Source: an uncultured Clostridia bacterium
Lineage (GTDB): Bacteria; Bacillota; Clostridia; Oscillospirales; Acutalibacteraceae
Assembly: GCA_944384985.1 (NCBI GenBank)
Contig: CALWVM010000001.1
Span: forward strand, 1-64,000
Reading direction: 5' to 3'
Length of the DNA: 64,000 bases
Shown here: piece after piece, positions 1,160 through 63,649 of the stretch
How the letters are laid out: the number at the start of each line of letters is the position of its first letter
Numbering within the stretch: position 1 is the stretch's first letter
Position numbers and translations under genes: made by a program
Notes under the pieces: model-generated
Told to the model about the DNA's origin: nothing
The model's input: the letters and a program-made list of their open reading frames with translations, nothing else
The model's database searches: none

Positions 1160-1252
1160 GCACGAGCGGCGGGAGCAAGCCCGTGCCCTACGGGAACGTG
1201 CGGATTTTCTGCTATACGGAAAGCCAAGCTGCGCACATCCGGCGATCACTGT

Positions 1253-1735
1253 CTAACATCCGGTGTCTAAGATGATTTCCATATACTGCCGCTGTTTTTG
1301 CATACCGATGGCTTCATAAAAGCGGATGGCGTTTGTATTGGTCGCCCAGACATTCAAATCGAGATTGTAGCAGTGCAGTTCTTTTGCCGCTTCGACGGCG
1401 CGTTCCATCAAAGCGCGCCCGATCCCCTGCCCGCGGCAGCTTTTATCCACGCACAGGTCGTCCACATACAGCGTGCGGTAAGGGCGCTGCGTGTAAAACG
1501 GTTCGTCCTTTTCTTCGAGCACGCACATGACGTAGCCGTTGACGCGGTCGTTTTCGTCCACGGAGACAAAAATGCGCTCGTTTTCGTTCCGGAATTTTTC
1601 GTGCAGAGCCGCTTCGTCATATTTCGGGCTTTCGCCGGAGAAAATATCGGGGCGTCCCTCGTGGTGCAGGCGTGCGATGTCCTGCAACAACTCGAGAACG
1701 CGCGGCGCGTCTTGCTCCTCTGCTTTTCGTATCAT
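1253..1735 (-). CDS. GNAT-family N-acetyltransferase
   Basis: A 160-residue single-domain GNAT acyltransferase. The acetyl-CoA-binding loop is clear as RGQGIGRAL (Q/RxxGxG/A type) after the beta4 strand TLYVDDLCVD, and the later WATNTNAIRFYEAIGM segment is the usual beta6/alpha4 of the family. The substrate cannot be inferred. GGGAG lies 9 nt before the ATG. It converges on sleB and shares no operon. Its last codons run into a degenerate copy of the TCTAACA-type heptad repeats (1252-1272), so the C-terminus may have been re-formed by a repeat. Confidence 0.85.
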   Translation of the reverse strand: MIRKAEEQDAPRVLELLQDIARLHHEGRPDIFSGESPKYDEAALHEKFRNENERIFVSVDENDRVNGYVMCVLEEKDEPFYTQRPYRTLYVDDLCVDKSCRGQGIGRALMERAVEAAKELHCYNLDLNVWATNTNAIRFYEAIGMQKQRQYMEIILDTGC

Positions 1736-22955: not shown

Positions 22956-23011
22956 GAATTTATTTGTAAACAATTTGTTAAAACGGAAAATTTGGGGTGC
23001 GATTGCAGCGT

Positions 23012-23268
23012 ACAGCGTTCAGATGTCTCAAGTCAACGGCGAGAGGGGCGGGGATTAAGTACCCGCCCCTACCACTTCAGGTTTTATTTTTCCTGCGCAG
23101 CCACAGATGGTTTGGGTTTCCGTGCTGCCACGCGTTTTTCTCTCCCTCCGGCTTCTGCCTTTGGCAAGACCCACCTCCCTCACCAGCGGGATGAAAAGCC
23201 CGTGCAGGCTTTCTGCTTTGTGCAACAGCCCCGCGCCGCATCTGCCTTCTGGCTTCTGACATCTGAAC
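23012..23268. repeat. Heptad-array bounded element (degenerate) enclosing a family 1 repeat
   Basis: The gap between hrcA and rplQ has no gene. A right array of four heptads (23241-23268: TCTGCCT, TCTGGCT, TCTGACA, TCTGAAC) faces a degenerate left array of xCAGxxx units (23012-23046). A poor copy of the family 1 repeat (23137-23193, TCTCCCTCCGGC...CACCTCCCTCACCAGCGGG) lies between them. Confidence 0.6.
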
Positions 23269-38962: not shown

Positions 38963-39221
38963 GTTTTGTTGCCTCCTTGAAAGTTAGGGCAAATGCTTTT
39001 CTGCAACCCTGCCGGGTGTTTACATCCTTCCGAATATAAAATCCGAAAAACCGCAGTTCTTCGGACGGCACAGAAAAGCGCACGGTCCCCTTTTTCGGCG
39101 CGGTTTGCACGCACCGCAAAGCGGACAGTATGGGTCGCCCGGTTTTGAATCGGACATACTCCGCGGTAATTCCCTGCATCAAAGTGCAGCCACCTACCGC
39201 ATCATCGCATATCGGTCGCAT

Positions 39222-39726: not shown

Positions 39727-39761
39727 TCTGTCATCTGATTTCTAACATCTGACATCTGAAC
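39727..39761 (+). repeat. 35-bp array of five heptads
   Basis: TCTGTCA, TCTGATT, TCTAACA, TCTGACA, TCTGAAC: five units of 7 bp in perfect register. No clear inverted partner was found within 150 bp upstream. Confidence 0.8.
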
Positions 39762-39774
39762 AGTGCCCCGCCTC

Positions 39775-39805
39775 ATACTATATAATATTATATATATAAT
39801 AGTAT
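39775..39805. repeat. AT-only interrupted palindrome
   Basis: ATACTAT at 39775-39781 and ATAGTAT at 39799-39805 flank an alternating A/T core in a GC-rich genome. Function unknown. Confidence 0.6.
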
Positions 39806-39808
39806 ACC

Positions 39809-39993: not shown

Positions 39994-40022
39994 TTGCAAA
40001 AAAATCGATTTTCCTATAAAAT
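39994..40022 (+). promoter_or_regulatory. Promoter of the glutamate synthase operon
   Basis: TTGCAA (39994-39999), 17 bp, TAAAAT (40017-40022), in an AT-rich patch (39880-40050). It gives a 5' leader of about 165 nt before the first gene. Confidence 0.6.
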
Positions 40023-40191
40023 TAAGAACATATTTTTCTAAAATTGCAAGTTTTCGCTTGAAATCCTGCAATTTGTCGGGGCGGCGCGCAGGGTGTGCGG
40101 CCGGCAGCACAGCGGCAAGCGCGCGCTTGCGGCGGCTGTACGTACACGGCTTTCCCGTCCCAAAAATCCACAGCACAGGGTGTGAGGTAAC

Positions 40192-41286
40192 ATGTTAAAA
40201 CGCGAAGGCGAGGTGCGCATCCCCTCCGGGTGCGCCATTTCCGCGATCATCGACCGCGACGGCACGCGCTTTTCGGGCGCGGACATCATCGAGAGCATCG
40301 CGCTCATGCACGACCGCTCCAACGGCTTGGGCGGAGGCTTTGCCGCCTACGGCATCTACCCCGAGCACAAGGAGTATTATGCGTTCCACATTTTCTATGA
40401 CGACAACGACGCGCGCGTGCGCACGGAAGAATTCCTCTTCCGCCACTTCGACATTGAGACGTTCGAGCAGATCCCGACGCGCAAAGTCAAATCCATCCGC
40501 CATGCGCCGCTCATCTGGCGCTATTTCGGCATGGTCCCGCAGAGCAAGATGCGCAAAAACGACTACGACGCGGACGAATACACCGCGCGGTGCGTCATCC
40601 GCATCAACAACACCATAACGGGCGCATTCGTCTTTTCGAGCGGCAAAAACATGGGTGCGTTCAAGGCGGTCGGCTACCCGGAGGACGTCGGCGAATACTA
40701 CATGCTTGACGACTACAAGGCGCACACCTGGACCGCGCACGGGCGCTTCCCGACGAACACCCCCGGCTGGTGGGGCGGCGCGCACCCGTTCACGCTTTTA
40801 GACTGGTCGATCGTCCACAACGGCGAGATTTCGAGCTACGATGCGAACCGCCGCTATGTTGAGCAGTTCGGCTACAAATGCAATCTGCAGACCGACACCG
40901 AGGTCATCACCTATCTGTTCGACCTCCTCGTTCGCCGCCAGGGGCTGACGCTCGAAACCGCCGCCAAGGTGCTCGCCGCACCGGAGTGGGACGTCATCGA
41001 CCGCATGCCCGACGAGGAACGCGAGATCTGCACCGCGCTGCGGGCAGTCTACTCCGGGGCACTCATCAACGGGCCGTTTTCCATTTTAGTCGGCTTCAAG
41101 CACGGCATTCTCGCGCTCAACGACCGGCTCAAGCTGCGTTCTCTGATTCAGGCGAAAAAGGGCAGCAAAACCTATTTTGCCTCGGAAGAGTCCGCCATCC
41201 GCGTGATCTGCCCGGATCCCGAATACATTGAAGCGGTAGACGGCGGCACGCCTGTGTTTATCCCGTTTGCGGAGGTGACAGACTGA
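40192..41286 (+). CDS. Glutamate synthase, class II glutamine amidotransferase subunit (split GltB1)
   Basis: A 364-residue Ntn-type glutaminase domain protein that would release ammonia from glutamine. The nucleophile is probably Cys14 in PSGCAISAI, requiring removal of the leader. Other family marks: HDRSNGLGGGFAAYG, TAHGRFPTNTPGWWGGAHPF, SIVHNGEISSYDANRRYVEQ, LQTDTEVITYLFDLL. In E. coli-type enzymes this is the first domain of one large chain; here it is a free subunit. GAGG lies before ATG 40192; the stop overlaps the next ATG (TGATG). Confidence 0.9.
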   Translation: MLKREGEVRIPSGCAISAIIDRDGTRFSGADIIESIALMHDRSNGLGGGFAAYGIYPEHKEYYAFHIFYDDNDARVRTEEFLFRHFDIETFEQIPTRKVKSIRHAPLIWRYFGMVPQSKMRKNDYDADEYTARCVIRINNTITGAFVFSSGKNMGAFKAVGYPEDVGEYYMLDDYKAHTWTAHGRFPTNTPGWWGGAHPFTLLDWSIVHNGEISSYDANRRYVEQFGYKCNLQTDTEVITYLFDLLVRRQGLTLETAAKVLAAPEWDVIDRMPDEEREICTALRAVYSGALINGPFSILVGFKHGILALNDRLKLRSLIQAKKGSKTYFASEESAIRVICPDPEYIEAVDGGTPVFIPFAEVTD

Positions 41287-42785
41287 TGCAGTATATGGTT
41301 CCTGAATTTGAGGTCGAGCGCAACACGTCGCGCTGCATTTCGTGCGGCGCGTGCGTGCGGCAGTGCTCGTATGAAGTCCATTATTTCGACGTGGACGGCA
41401 AGACCGTGCTCGCGGACGAAAGCAAATGTGTCGCCTGCCATCGCTGCGCGACGATCTGCCCGACGCACGCCATCAAAATCAAGGCATACGACATGGCGTA
41501 TAAACCGCACGCCAACTGGACCCCGGTCGTGCAGCAGGAAATCCTCAAGCAGGCCCAGACGGGCGGCGTGCTGCTTTCGGGCATGTCCAACAACAAGCCG
41601 TATCCGATTTACTGGGATCGAATCCTGTTAAACGCAAGCCAGGTCACGAACCCCTCCATCGATCCGCTGCGCGAGCCGATGGAGATCCGCACGTATCTCG
41701 GCCGCAAGCCGAAAAAGCTGGAGTTCCACAAAAACGGCAAGCTCAAAACCAAGCTTGAGCCGCAGATCAAGCTCGAAACACCCATTATGTTTTCCGCGAT
41801 GTCGTTCGGCTCGATCTCATTTAACGCGCAGAAATCGCTCGCGATGGCGGCGCGCAAGCTCGGCACGCTGTTCAACACCGGCGAGGGCGGCATGCACCCG
41901 GGGCTGCGGGAATACAGCGACTGCGCCGTTGTGCAGGTCGCGTCCGGCAGATTTGGCGTATACAAGGATTATCTTGAAAACTGCCGGTTTATCGAGATCA
42001 AAATCGGCCAGGGCGCAAAGCCCGGCATCGGCGGGCATCTGCCCGGCGAAAAGGTAACGGTCGAGGTCAGCAATGCGCGCATGATCCCCGAAGGGTCGGA
42101 CGCCATTTCCCCCGCGCCGCACCACGACATTTACTCCATTGAGGATCTGCGCCAGCTCATCTGGTCGCTCAAAGAGGCGACCCAGTACAAAAAGCCCGTG
42201 GCGGTCAAGATCGCGGCGGTGCACAACTGCTCCGCCATTGTTTCGGGCGTGGCGCGCGCAGGCGCAGACATCGTCGTGATGGACGGCTTCCGCGGCGGCA
42301 CGGGCGCGGCGCCCACCCGCATCCGCGACAACGTAGGCATCCCCATCGAGCTTGCGCTCGCGGCGGCGGACCAGCGGCTCCGGGATGAGAGCATCCGCGG
42401 CACGGTCTCGCTTGTGGCGGCGGGCTCGTTCCGCAACTCGGCAGACATCGTCAAAGCCATCGCGCTGGGCGCGGACGCGGTGTATGTGGCCTCCGCCCCG
42501 CTCATTGCCATGGGCTGCCACATGTGCCAGCAGTGCCAGACGGGCAAGTGCAACTGGGGCATCGCGACCCAGCGCCCCGAGCTTGTCAAACGCCTGAACC
42601 CCGAAATCATGCACGAACGCGTGGTGAATCTCATCACTGCGTGGAACCACGAGATCAAGGAAATGCTCGGCGGCATGGGGCTCAATTCCATCGACTCCCT
42701 GCGCGGCAACCGCATGATGCTGCGCGGCATCGGGCTTTCCGACCGGGAACTTTCGATTCTCGGTATCGCCCACGCCGGGGAATAA
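41286..42785 (+). CDS. Glutamate synthase, ferredoxin/FMN-binding synthase subunit (split GltB2)
   Basis: A 499-residue protein. The N-terminus has two 4Fe-4S clusters (CISCGACVRQC, CVACHRCATICP). The FMN barrel follows: FSAMSFGSISFNAQKSLAMA, NTGEGGMHPG, GQGAKPGIGGHLPGEKV, DGFRGGTGAAP; and CHMCQQCQTGKCNWGIATQ is the 3Fe-4S site of glutamate synthases. It would join 2-oxoglutarate and ammonia to glutamate using reduced ferredoxin or the partner oxidoreductase. Confidence 0.93.
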   Translation: MQYMVPEFEVERNTSRCISCGACVRQCSYEVHYFDVDGKTVLADESKCVACHRCATICPTHAIKIKAYDMAYKPHANWTPVVQQEILKQAQTGGVLLSGMSNNKPYPIYWDRILLNASQVTNPSIDPLREPMEIRTYLGRKPKKLEFHKNGKLKTKLEPQIKLETPIMFSAMSFGSISFNAQKSLAMAARKLGTLFNTGEGGMHPGLREYSDCAVVQVASGRFGVYKDYLENCRFIEIKIGQGAKPGIGGHLPGEKVTVEVSNARMIPEGSDAISPAPHHDIYSIEDLRQLIWSLKEATQYKKPVAVKIAAVHNCSAIVSGVARAGADIVVMDGFRGGTGAAPTRIRDNVGIPIELALAAADQRLRDESIRGTVSLVAAGSFRNSADIVKAIALGADAVYVASAPLIAMGCHMCQQCQTGKCNWGIATQRPELVKRLNPEIMHERVVNLITAWNHEIKEMLGGMGLNSIDSLRGNRMMLRGIGLSDRELSILGIAHAGE

Positions 42786-45226: not shown

Positions 45227-45270
45227 ATTTTAGTGCCGGACGCCGGATTTTAGATGTGCGGCGGGCGCTT

Positions 45271-45395
45271 TCAGCCTTTAGATTTCAGTAGTCAGAAATC
45301 AGATGCGGTGTAGGTAGGCTTTACGCATTGCCGCGGCTGCGCAGAAATACCCCTGTCATGTCTGATATCTAAATCTAACGTCTAAAATCTAAGCC
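45271..45395. repeat. Inverted pair of heptad arrays (element 1 after glutamate synthase operon)
   Basis: Left array 45271-45305: TCAGCCT, TTAGATT, TCAGTAG, TCAGAAA, TCAGATG. Right array 45361-45394: TCTGATA, TCTAAA, TCTAACG, TCTAAAA, TCTAAGC (one unit is 6 bp). Spacer about 55 bp. Part of a 515-bp gap without genes; a truncated left array (TTAGATT, TTAGTGC) lies at the end of the preceding gene. Confidence 0.8.
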
Positions 45396-45467
45396 GGACA
45401 GCCGCAAGGGCTGTCACTACGGCGGGTTCTGTTTTATGATGCCGCACTGCTGAAAAGTTGTAAGGAA

Positions 45468-45503
45468 TCCTCTTTCCCCACGCAGGGAAAGGGGATTTTT
45501 ATT
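45468..45503 (+). terminator. Terminator of the glutamate synthase operon
   Basis: CCTCTTTCCC / GGGAAAGGGG hairpin with a short loop, followed by ATTTTTAT. It lies 240 bp after the last stop codon, beyond element 1. Confidence 0.75.
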
Positions 45504-45526
45504 TGGCGGATCTTTGCGACTGCGAA

Positions 45527-45710
45527 CAGAGTTCAGTCGTTAGATGTCGGAAGTTAAATGCGGGGCGGGAAAATTTCATTAAACCAAAAGTTAGTACAAA
45601 TTTTCGGCTGCGAAGAAAACTAAAATTTTGCTGAACCTTGTAGGGGCGGCTGCGCAGGAAATCCCCCATCCCACATCTAATATCTAACTTCTACCATCTA
45701 ACATCTAAAA
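45527..45710. repeat. Inverted pair of heptad arrays (element 2)
   Basis: Left array 45527-45561: ACAGAGT, TCAGTCG, TTAGATG, TCGGAAG, TTAAATG. Right array 45676-45710: TCTAATA, TCTAACT, TCTACCA, TCTAACA, TCTAAAA. Both are exactly five units; spacer 114 bp. Confidence 0.85.
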
Positions 45711-61646: not shown

Positions 61647-61668
61647 AGGGAATCCTTCTTTCACCTGA

Positions 61669-61792
61669 ACAGAATGCAGAGGACAGAAATCAGAGGTTAG
61701 ACCGTGTTTTTGAGCCCCGCGTGCAGGGCTTCGAAACTATAAAAACTTCTTCCCGCTTCTGTCTTCTGCCTTCTGTTTTCTGAATACTGAAA
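61669..61792. repeat. Inverted pair of heptad arrays (element 3)
   Basis: Left array 61669-61703: ACAGAAT, GCAGAGG, ACAGAAA, TCAGAGG, TTAGACC. Right array 61758-61792: TCTGTCT, TCTGCCT, TCTGTTT, TCTGAAT, ACTGAAA. Five units each, spacer 54 bp, filling the gap between purB and the RING gene. Confidence 0.85.
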
Positions 61793-63226
61793 TCAGACCT
61801 TGATCTCGACTTCCAGCCCCAGCAGATCGCGGTAGCGGTCCAAAATCGGCTGCACGTCGCTTTGCAAAAACTGCGTGACCTGCTGCGGGGCGCGGCCGAC
61901 GAAGTTTTGCGGCACGAGCTCGGCGCGCAGTTCTTCGATCGTCATGCCAAACGCCGGGTCAGCGGCGATGCGCTCCAACAGGTCGTTGGGTTTGCCCTCG
62001 ACCTTGACGACTCTCCCCGCCGCCATGGAGTGCTGGCGGATGCGCTCGTGCAGCTCCTGGCGGTCGCCGCCCTTTTTAACGGCAGCCATCAGGATATTTT
62101 CGGTCGCCATGAACGGCAGTTCTTCGTTCAGGCGTTTTTCGATCATCTTCGGGTAGACGACCAGCCCGCTGACGATGTTGATATACAGTTCCAAAATCGC
62201 ATCCGTTGCAAGGAACGCCTCCGGAATGCTGATGCGCTTGTTGGCGGAGTCGTCGAGCGTGCGCTCAAACCACTGGGTCGCCGCAGTGACGGCGGGGTTC
62301 GTGGCATCGGCGATCACATAGCGCGAAAGCGAGGCGATGCGCTCACTGCGCATGGGGTTGCGCTTATACGCCATCGCCGACGAGCCGATCTGATGCGCTT
62401 CAAACGGCTCTTCGATCTCTTTTAAGTGCTGCAGCAGCCGCAGGTCGTTCGAGAATTTATGCGCGGACTGCGCGATCCCCGACAATACGAACAGCACCTG
62501 GCTGTCTAATTTGCGCGGATAGGTCTGCCCCGAAACGGGGAAGACGCTCGAAAAGCCCATTTTTTCGGCGATCTTGCGGTCGAGCGCGACGACCTTTTCG
62601 GTGTCGCCCTCGAAAAGCTCCATAAAGCTCGCCTGTGTGCCCGTCGTGCCCTTCGAGCCCAGAAGCCGCATCTGCGAAAGCTGGAATTCGAGCGCGGAAA
62701 AGTCCATCAAAAGGTCCATGAGCCACAAACTCGCGCGCTTGCCGACGGTCGTGGGCTGCGCAGGCTGGAAATGCGTAAACGCAAGGCAGGGCATATTCTT
62801 ATATTCGTCGGCGAATTTTGCCAGACGGTCTAAAAGGTTGACCATCTTTTTGCGGATGAGTTTTAAGCCTTCGGTCATGATGATAACGTCGGTGTTGTCG
62901 CCGACATAGCACGACGTCGCGCCCAGGTGGATGATGCCCTTTGCTTTCGGGCACTGCACGCCGTAGGCGTAGACGTGGCTCATCACGTCGTGGCGCACCT
63001 CGCGTTCGCGCGCCTCTGCGACCTCATAGTTGATGTCGTCGGCGTGGGCTTTGAGCTCGGCGATCTGTTCGTCGGTGATATGCAGCCCCAATTCCTGTTC
63101 GCTTTCGGCAAGGGCGATCCAGAGTTTGCGCCAGGTGCGGAATTTGAAATCCGGCGAGAAGATGTATTTCATCTCGCGGCTCGCGTAACGCGAATTCAAC
63201 GGGCTTTCATAAACGTCTTTGGACAT
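61793..63226 (-). CDS. purB: Adenylosuccinate lyase
   Basis: 477 residues, fumarase/aspartase superfamily. Active-site regions: [26 protein letters not shown], and the signature [17 protein letters not shown] (Ser loop). Works in purine synthesis at two steps. The stop codon abuts heptad element 3 and the start is 15 bp from heptad element 4. Confidence 0.96.
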
Positions 63227-63241
63227 GGTTTTCCTCCGCTT

Positions 63242-63649
63242 TCAGATGTTAGATATTAGAAGTTAGATATTAAACGTGGGGTGGGCGGGGTCTCGGCGCT
63301 GCCGAAAGATATAGCGGACGCGGTAAACTTCCGGTTGTGCCGGGGATTTTCTCCCGCGCCCTACAGTCTCTCCCTCCGGCACGCGCAAAGCGCGTGCCAC
63401 CTCCCTCATCAGAGGGAGGACCGAGTTACAACAAGCCTTCGGTTGTGCGCTGCCCCCTCTGACAAGGGTAATTCCCCACGGTGTGGGGAAATGTCGCAAA
63501 GCGACAAAGGGGACGGCCGCCGTCAGCGGCTGGCAAGCGTTAGCGAGACTGGGGGAGAGAAAAACCTTGAGGACATGCAGTAAAAACCAAAGCGGCGAGG
63601 CTCCCTGTTTTGCTTCTGACTGCTGCTTTCTGATCTCTGCTGTCTACGG
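63242..63649. repeat. Inverted pair of heptad arrays (element 4) enclosing a family 1 repeat (locus E)
   Basis: Left array 63242-63276: TCAGATG, TTAGATA, TTAGAAG, TTAGATA, TTAAACG. Right array 63615-63649: TCTGACT, GCTGCTT, TCTGATC, TCTGCTG, TCTACGG; its last unit covers the aspS stop codon. Between them (63368-63561) is a full family 1 repeat: TCTCTCCCTCCGGCACGCGC, CCTCCCTCATCAGAGGGAGG, then GTGGGGAAATGTCGCAAAGC, GGCCGCCGTCAGCGGC and GGGGGAGAGA. No gene in this gap. Confidence 0.82.

What the first reader, a model, noticed from the sequence alone, without database searches (positions are those of the whole stretch)
45271..45710. Mirror-image arrays of exactly five 7-bp units bound small intergenic elements
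Two elements here, and further ones at 61669-61792, 63242-63649 and (degenerate) 23012-23268, share one design: a left array of five xCAGxxx/xTAGxxx heptads, 54-340 bp of spacer, and a right array of five TCTRAxx heptads, i.e. 35-bp inverted arms. A single right array lies at 39727-39761 and a fragment at 1252-1272. The units vary at fixed positions while the 7-bp register and the number five are kept, which suggests selection or a copying mechanism rather than a simple palindrome. All occur in gene ends or gaps, some abutting stop codons. They could be a non-autonomous mobile element, a recombinase/replication target, or an RNA-level structure. Heptanucleotide repeats are known in cyanobacteria (STRR), but the mirrored five-unit layout is not one I can name.
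Basis: partly seen in the sequence, partly recalled or inferred. Interest (0 to 1): 0.75.

Follow-up and report, generated by a model that had tools for sequence, protein, structure and literature searches.

The report
Mirrored seven-base-repeat hairpin elements
Short hairpin DNA elements whose two arms are each built of about five seven-base units sit in the gaps between genes here, and look like protein-less relatives of the selfish "intervening sequences" that interrupt ribosomal RNA genes in many bacteria.

Summary
The arrays are real and far above chance: 129 hits against 4 for the reversed pattern in this genome, and no reversed-pattern hit in 398 genomes of the phylum. Five units is the mode in the window genome and two close relatives. 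Arrays face outward in pairs and share an inner 30 bp. In orthologous gaps of three species the outer array edges stay while interiors are replaced; identity falls through the array from 0.95 (outer unit) to 0.75 (inner unit).

Mirrored arrays of this build occur elsewhere inside 16S and 23S rRNA genes and between tRNA genes. [quoted passage not shown] One rRNA operon holds coding and non-coding hairpins of one heptamer family.

I conclude that the window elements are protein-less relatives of that class. No PF05635, Y1 transposase or reverse transcriptase was found in the window genome and no target duplication was seen, so how they move is unknown. A five-subunit PF05635 ring reading five heptamers is a testable guess.

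The parts
45269..45303 (-). left array, five units, element 1
   Evidence: orthologous array in G038
45304..45360 (.). spacer of element 1: two inverted copies of the conserved inner sequence (TGCGGTGYRGGYAGG...)
   Evidence: inner consensus read from the listing
45361..45394 (+). right array of element 1 (five units, one a base short)
   Evidence: by reading; one search lists its last three units
45524..45558 (-). left array, element 2
45676..45710 (+). right array, element 2; abuts a terminator-like hairpin
   Evidence: orthologous in G025
61667..61701 (-). left array of the element downstream of the purB-like gene
   Evidence: same place in G025, absent in G038
61758..61792 (+). right array; abuts the stop codon of the purB-like gene
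63240..63274 (-). left array; abuts the ribosome-binding site of the purB-like gene
   Evidence: same edge in G025 and G038
63615..63649 (+). right array; by reading, its last unit contains the stop codon of the aspS-like gene (63644-63646)
39727..39761 (+). single right array
23241..23268 (+). right array, four units; left partner at 23010-23037 very degenerate
1252..1272 (+). three-unit remnant (TCTAACA TCCGGTG TCTAAGA)
61793..63226 (-). purB-like gene (name recognised by eye, from no call) between two elements; used to compare orthologous gaps

Best explanation
The window elements are protein-less members (or close relatives) of a bacteria-wide class of small hairpin elements whose ends are mirrored arrays of about five heptamers. 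The protein-coding members carry a PF05635 (S23p/IVP, four-helix-bundle) gene between the arrays and include rRNA intervening sequences. The heptamer is a lineage trait that coding and non-coding copies can share. In the window's genus a non-coding TCTRAYN family spread into gene gaps, often flush with hairpins, ribosome-binding sites or stop codons. Once in place, the similar ends act as joints: ectopic recombination or conversion swaps interiors while the outer units stay. Shown: anatomy, the PF05635 association, insertions in RNA genes, interior turnover. Inferred: common descent of the window family with PF05635 elements. Speculative: that a pentameric PF05635 ring binds one heptamer per subunit, which would explain both the seven and the five.
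For: Neighbouring arrays within 60 bp are in the mirrored order in 23 of 26 pairs in the loci (a few loci repeat one element). The strict mirrored pattern hits 4 stretches (two perhaps the same element), the opposite order 0. PF05635 flanks: seven-base periodicity in 48 of 130 against 5 of 125 control windows, other lags 0-9 of 130; both flanks 32 of 65 against 0 of 60; up and down heptamers match as inverted copies 5.6 of 7 against 3.5 for other loci, 8 of 22 perfect against 0 of 462; 4-5 units in 46 of 76 arrays. TCTRA-type arrays flank PF05635 genes in G342, G096, G317 and an Okeania genome, the last with about 30 units. G096 has, in one rRNA operon, two array-only hairpins and one PF05635 element of one heptamer family. 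G342 has a PF05635 element as a clean insert in RNase P RNA. Interior turnover.
Against: G000, G025 and G038 give no PF05635 match, and the stretches held give no remnant (best E 0.054 apart from the positive control). In the genus 3 of 8 array-bearing genomes have PF05635 (one below cut-off) against 20 of 31 others: no association there. In the phylum sample it is 6 of 17 array-bearing genomes against 66 of 381 others, only a modest excess. 33 of 65 PF05635 loci fail the both-flanks test. Of 60 of these loci scanned with Rfam, 2 lie in rRNA. The PF05635 gene of G002 has no TCTRA arrays beside it. Convergence on heptamers by slippage is not excluded.
Confidence: 0.57

Rival explanations
1. An ordinary MITE: terminal inverted repeats (arrays plus the inner 30 bp) moved by a transposase acting in trans.
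For: Small, non-coding, inverted ends, nested copies, patchy occurrence in 8 of 39 genomes; ends identical over 105 bp at different loci in G038, three pairs.
Against: No clear target duplication: of 21 complete 5+5 elements, 12 have no direct repeat of 3 bp or more at the edges, 6 have 3 bp, 2 have 4, 1 has 6 (no shuffled control). No transposase was seen between the arrays I read; of transposase families only Y1 was searched.
Confidence: 0.17
2. A REP/RAYT by-product: the arrays are parts of REP-based mosaic elements moved by a Y1 transposase.
For: Array outer edges abut REP-like hairpins in 45 of 211 cases against 39 of 1680 random non-coding positions.
Against: Y1 (PF01797) matches occur in 2 of 8 array-bearing genomes of the genus (G018, and one just over cut-off in G025) against 21 of 31 others; none in G000, G002 or G038. 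Many arrays lie away from REPs.
Confidence: 0.07
3. Heptamer microsatellites kept by selection as translation or mRNA signals, as proposed for TAACTGA repeats.
For: Outer edges sit 10-20 bp from a start codon in 22 of 103 cases and overlap a stop in 14 of 106 (crude ORF calls); heptamers are over-represented in bacteria (passages of PMC4679880 and PMC4692102).
Against: Unit number peaks at five, units keep position-specific sequences, ends share an inner 30 bp, order is mirrored. The aspS-purB gap is 15-16 bp and array-free in G036 and G001.
Confidence: 0.1
4. A structured RNA or RNase III substrate under selection for pairing of the two arms.
For: Strong hairpins in rRNA and tRNA clusters (z -6.1 to -9.2) and at 61667-61792 (z -6.35 and -4.0). 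In loci of many species own arms match better than shuffled (0.609 against 0.442), though species differ in unit flavour.
Against: Element 1 folds weakly (z -1.9 and -3.2; -0.8 with more flank). In 26 genus pairs own arms match less than shuffled arms (0.328 against 0.406 at positions 4, 6 and 7; 496 of 500 shuffles as high). No clear orientation to transcription.
Confidence: 0.09

Closest known systems
rRNA intervening sequences (IVS) with S23p/IVP gene (PF05635)
   Same: Inverted ends forming a stem, small size, insertion in gaps and helix tips, heptameric repeats at the end (three tandem heptamers are noted in the Coxiella IVS in PMC4990558, passages seen)
   Different: Window elements are intergenic, carry no protein and have mostly five units per arm
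Bacterial MITEs
   Same: Short, non-coding, inverted ends
   Different: Ends are tandem heptamers; no clear target duplication; no known transposase
REPINs/BIMEs with RAYT
   Same: Intergenic palindromes, mosaics, REPs at the edges
   Different: Arrays are not REPs, and no Y1 transposase was found in G000, G002 or G038
TAACTGA, GGGAATC and cyanobacterial STRR heptamer repeats
   Same: Period seven, intergenic, near start codons
   Different: Described in the passages read mainly as direct repeats of varying copy number; PMC4692102 notes some inverted pairs; STRR known to me only through citations there
Drosophila foldback elements (recalled, not looked up)
   Same: Inverted ends made of short tandem units around an unrelated middle
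   Different: Eukaryotic, much longer; an analogy only
TRAP ring reading tandem RNA triplets (recalled)
   Same: Model for a ring protein reading evenly spaced repeats, one per subunit
   Different: Eleven subunits and triplets; no binding shown for PF05635

Membership tests
IVS / PF05635 element | mirrored ends able to form a stem | tested here: met
   folding strong at 61667-61792, weak at 45269-45394
IVS / PF05635 element | PF05635 gene between the ends | tested here: not met
   no match in G000, G025, G038; met in G096, G342, G317, Okeania
IVS / PF05635 element | insertion in rRNA | tested here: not met
   window elements are intergenic; array-only relatives do lie in 16S and 23S genes; 2 of 60 PF05635 loci scanned lie in rRNA
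IVS / PF05635 element | heptamer arrays at the ends | tested here: met
   window; PF05635 loci: (32 of 65 on both sides)
IVS / PF05635 element | excision from RNA by RNase III | not testable with these tools
   -
MITE | target-site duplication | tested here: not met
   21 complete elements
MITE | transposase with matching ends | tested here: inconclusive
   only the Y1 family was searched
REPIN/BIME | RAYT (Y1) transposase in the genome | tested here: not met
   none in G000
Heptamer microsatellite (STRR/TAACTGA) | free variation of unit number | tested here: inconclusive
   mode five in G000, G025, G038; free in G002

The most novel reading that the evidence does not exclude
Bacteria hold one large, ancient class of hairpin mobile elements whose ends are not a fixed sequence but a fixed format: about five tandem heptamers, mirrored, with each lineage using its own heptamer. 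PF05635 pentamers (relatives of the Avd protein of diversity-generating retroelements) read that format, one heptamer per subunit, and guide insertion at hairpin tips without target duplication. Protein-less copies such as those here then take over gene gaps and serve as joints for swapping their contents.
Probability: 0.27. Interest if true: 0.92.

Novelty: new variant of a known kind. Interest (0 to 1): 0.76.

Why it matters
Intervening sequences were found over 25 years ago, and their function and origin are said to remain unclear (PMC4990558, passages seen). A common end format shared by PF05635 elements in rRNA, RNase P RNA and gene gaps, and by protein-less copies, would turn scattered heptamer repeats and IVSs into one testable class. 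It gives a concrete binding hypothesis (five subunits, five heptamers), and a natural series of species in which gap contents are swapped while the element edges stay.

Tried and rejected
RAYT/Y1 as driver: no match in G000, G002 or G038. Reverse transcriptase as partner: no match in G000, G002 or G025, one in G038. PF05635 remnants in held G000, G025, G038 and G002 stretches: 10 query proteins, best hit E 0.054 apart from the positive control. Compensatory pairing of arms in the genus: opposite of expected. Orientation of TCTAA- and TCTGA-type arms to transcription: too few to tell. Clean empty site in 16S: relatives' hits were cut by contig ends or seem to carry an insertion too, so undecided. 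Rfam over the window gave only an S10 leader.

Counting notes: 49 of 104 orthologous edge pairs were dropped because they were not one-to-one, and pairs had to align in the outer flank, so its high identity there is partly by choice. In one search the inverted-copy test used 22 of 65 loci (both flanks periodic, no N); the 65 are the loci kept for best-scoring hits, some from one genome; 3 have internal stops. In one search, 29 of 30 handles were searched; they were chosen because they hold arrays. Searches ignored the strand of the PF05635 hit; one search repeats the count with the strand right, and its numbers are used.

Full report
Observation. Every array named in the finding is in the sequence. 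Five Markov-simulated windows gave no 35-bp stretch scoring 19 of 25 or more; the real window gave 25 overlapping ones. In the 2.12-Mb genome the three-unit pattern hits 129 times against 4 for the reversed control. G025 and G038, the closest relatives by one protein (97 and 98%), give 125 against 2 and 151 against 0 with a four-unit pattern and one mismatch. Among 39 genomes of the genus, exact four-unit arrays occur in 8: G002 102, G038 91, G025 57, G000 25, G019 7, G037 3, G018 1, G020 1. Among arrays scoring 9 or more in the stretches held, five units is the mode: 30 of 46 in G000, 23 of 27 in G025, 9 of 12 in G038; in G002 43 of 98, some with up to 16 units.

Anatomy. Read outward, an end is commonly about 30 bp of related sequence (roughly CGGCTTTGCGNAAACCTGCCCACACCGCA) followed by five units, TCTRAYN being the commonest form. 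Left and right arrays alike carry it, so the inverted ends are some 65 bp long and the heptamers are their outer half (read from the listing). Units have position-specific preferences, which suggests that arrays are copied as wholes. The smallest element (45269-45394) is little more than two such ends head to head. Larger ones hold REP-like hairpins (GTAG plus a palindrome) and other shared modules, and nested pairs are common. 195 of 211 arrays lie outside long ORFs, in sequence that is 17.7% non-coding by the same crude caller. Outer edges lie 10-20 bp from a start codon in 22 of 103 cases and overlap a stop codon in 14 of 106. They abut a hairpin in 103 of 211 cases, against 504 of 1680 random non-coding positions, and a REP-like hairpin in 45 of 211 against 39 of 1680.

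Evolution in the genus. The window is syntenic with a G025 contig at about 85-93% identity. In orthologous gaps of G000, G025 and G038 the flanks often align exactly up to the outer edges of the arrays, while array number and content between them differ. Over 55 one-to-one orthologous edges, identity is 0.88 in the first 20 bp outside, then 0.95, 0.89, 0.83, 0.80 and 0.75 from the outer to the inner unit, then 0.61, 0.49, 0.38 and 0.32 in the next 60 bp inward. Non-orthologous arrays give 0.68 (outer) to 0.55 (inner), and 0.40 falling to 0.25 further in. At one edge only the outermost unit and the flank are shared (G000 C1b 82277 against G025 C16 8349). The edges therefore stay and the insides are exchanged, with switch points spread over the arrays. 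Indels inside the arms could add to the decline, and pairs were chosen for alignable outer flanks. The gap between the aspS-like and purB-like genes (names recognised by eye) is 15-16 bp in G036 and G001 and longer but array-free in G033 and G037; G017 and G005 have other inserts there. In G000 and G038 it is filled from the aspS stop codon to the purB ribosome-binding site by array-bounded elements; G025 has the same array edge next to purB before its contig ends. Ends identical over 105 bp at different loci occur in G038 (three pairs). G002 has 62 pairs at 90% or more, 52 with different outer flanks; G025 has 9 and 5, some tandem; G000 has none, so its set looks older. No clear target duplication is seen in 21 complete elements.

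Other bacteria. In 398 genomes of the phylum it occurs in 17, the control in none. In the loci, arrays within 60 bp of each other are in the mirrored order in 23 of 26 cases, and in 28 of 42 within 600 bp. Loci outside the genus gave the key: mirrored arrays lie inside the 16S gene of G327, after the 16S and inside the 23S gene of G096, and between tRNA genes in G327 and G214. The RNA folds into long hairpins there (z -9.0, -7.6, -9.2, -7.0, -6.1). That is the setting of rRNA intervening sequences, which can encode the S23p/IVP protein, PF05635.

PF05635. It is found in 72 of 398 phylum genomes (59 above cut-off), 23 of 39 in the genus (22 above), 17 of 29 genomes or records picked for their arrays, and 0 of 14 control genomes. 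In the phylum sample 6 of 17 array-bearing genomes have it against 66 of 381 others. Of 65 loci, 32 have seven-base periodicity on both sides (control windows 0 of 60; lags 5, 6, 8 and 9 give 0, 0, 5 and 0). Single flanks pass the stricter cut in 48 of 130 cases against 5 of 125. The heptamers differ between loci but tend to be inverted copies within a locus (mean 5.6 of 7 against 3.5 for other loci; 8 of 22 perfect against 0 of 462). Unit number peaks at 4 (21) and 5 (25) of 76 arrays. Most PF05635 genes are not inside known RNAs: of 60 of the 65 loci scanned with Rfam, 2 lie in 23S rRNA (L471, L494). A further PF05635 gene of G342, with its arrays, sits in a helix tip of RNase P RNA between Rfam model positions 136 and 137, the rest of the molecule being intact. 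In G096 one rRNA operon holds two array-only hairpins and one PF05635 element with the same heptamer family: a coding and a non-coding form side by side.

Mechanism. Shown: mirrored order, copying of ends, tolerance at gene edges and helix tips, exchange of interiors. Inferred: the window family descends from, or is mobilised like, PF05635 elements. The gap in the argument is plain. No PF05635 match is found in G000, G025 or G038, no Y1 match in G000, G002 or G038 and one just over cut-off in G025, no reverse transcriptase in G000, G002 or G025 and one in G038; and within the genus PF05635 does not track the TCTRAYN arrays. The family may have lost its helper, or may now spread only by recombination. 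Speculative: PF05635 structures 2gsc and 2rld are each deposited with five chains, and the Xanthomonas protein is described as five four-helix bundles (title of Lin 2006 seen in the reference list of PMC10053308; a statement in PMC4990558). Five subunits reading five heptamers would explain both numbers. PMC10053308 (passages) notes likeness to the Avd protein of diversity-generating retroelements.

Prior work. PMC4990558 (passages) describes tandem heptamers upstream of S23p in one IVS and a 28-bp terminal stem. PMC11270868 (two passages) finds 23S_rRNA_IVP in 16S and 23S insertions; my terms for heptamer, inverted repeat and hairpin had no occurrence there. PMC4679880 (abstract and passages) and PMC4692102 (passages) describe heptamer repeats, mostly direct. 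Eight searches of the open library listed no paper that I could recognise, from titles and abstract starts, as tying mirrored heptamer arrays to PF05635 elements in general or to protein-less intergenic copies. Subscription papers are mostly not in that library.

Noticed in passing
L542:2287-3059 (G342 contig 60): RNase P RNA gene interrupted by an intervening sequence that encodes a PF05635 protein and has mirrored heptamer arms.
   Followed up: yes
L447:1760-1982 (G327 contig 63): 16S rRNA gene with a mirrored five-plus-five heptamer hairpin near its 5' end (V1 helix by my reading); G229 carries a similar insert, perhaps G303 too.
   Followed up: partly
window 39132-39213: S10-Clostridia ribosomal protein leader (Rfam RF03136) beside the lone array at 39727.
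   Followed up: no
window 63361-63420 and relatives: A CTCTCCCTCCGGC...CCTCCCTCATCAGAGGGAGGA module; a like module in L043 matches other species at up to 99% where flanks are about 84% alike: a separate interspersed repeat.
   Followed up: no
gene gaps of G000, G025, G038: Abundant GTAG-headed REP-like hairpins although no Y1 transposase match is found in G000 or G038.
   Followed up: partly
G002 loci L057-L076: Outer TCTAGCA-type arrays of up to 16 units next to inner five-unit arrays.
   Followed up: partly
L108-L109 (G025 contig 9, about 40000-41500): About 1.3 kb between arrays in front of the S10 operon seems, by eye, to hold a zinc-ribbon gene and a helix-turn-helix gene; possible cargo.
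   Followed up: no
PF05635 loci: Eight-base periodicity in 9 of 130 flanks, more than any lag tested other than seven; some elements may use octamers.
   Followed up: no
window 39775-39806: Tandem TATATAATAGTATA units, partly kept in G025 and G037.
   Followed up: no
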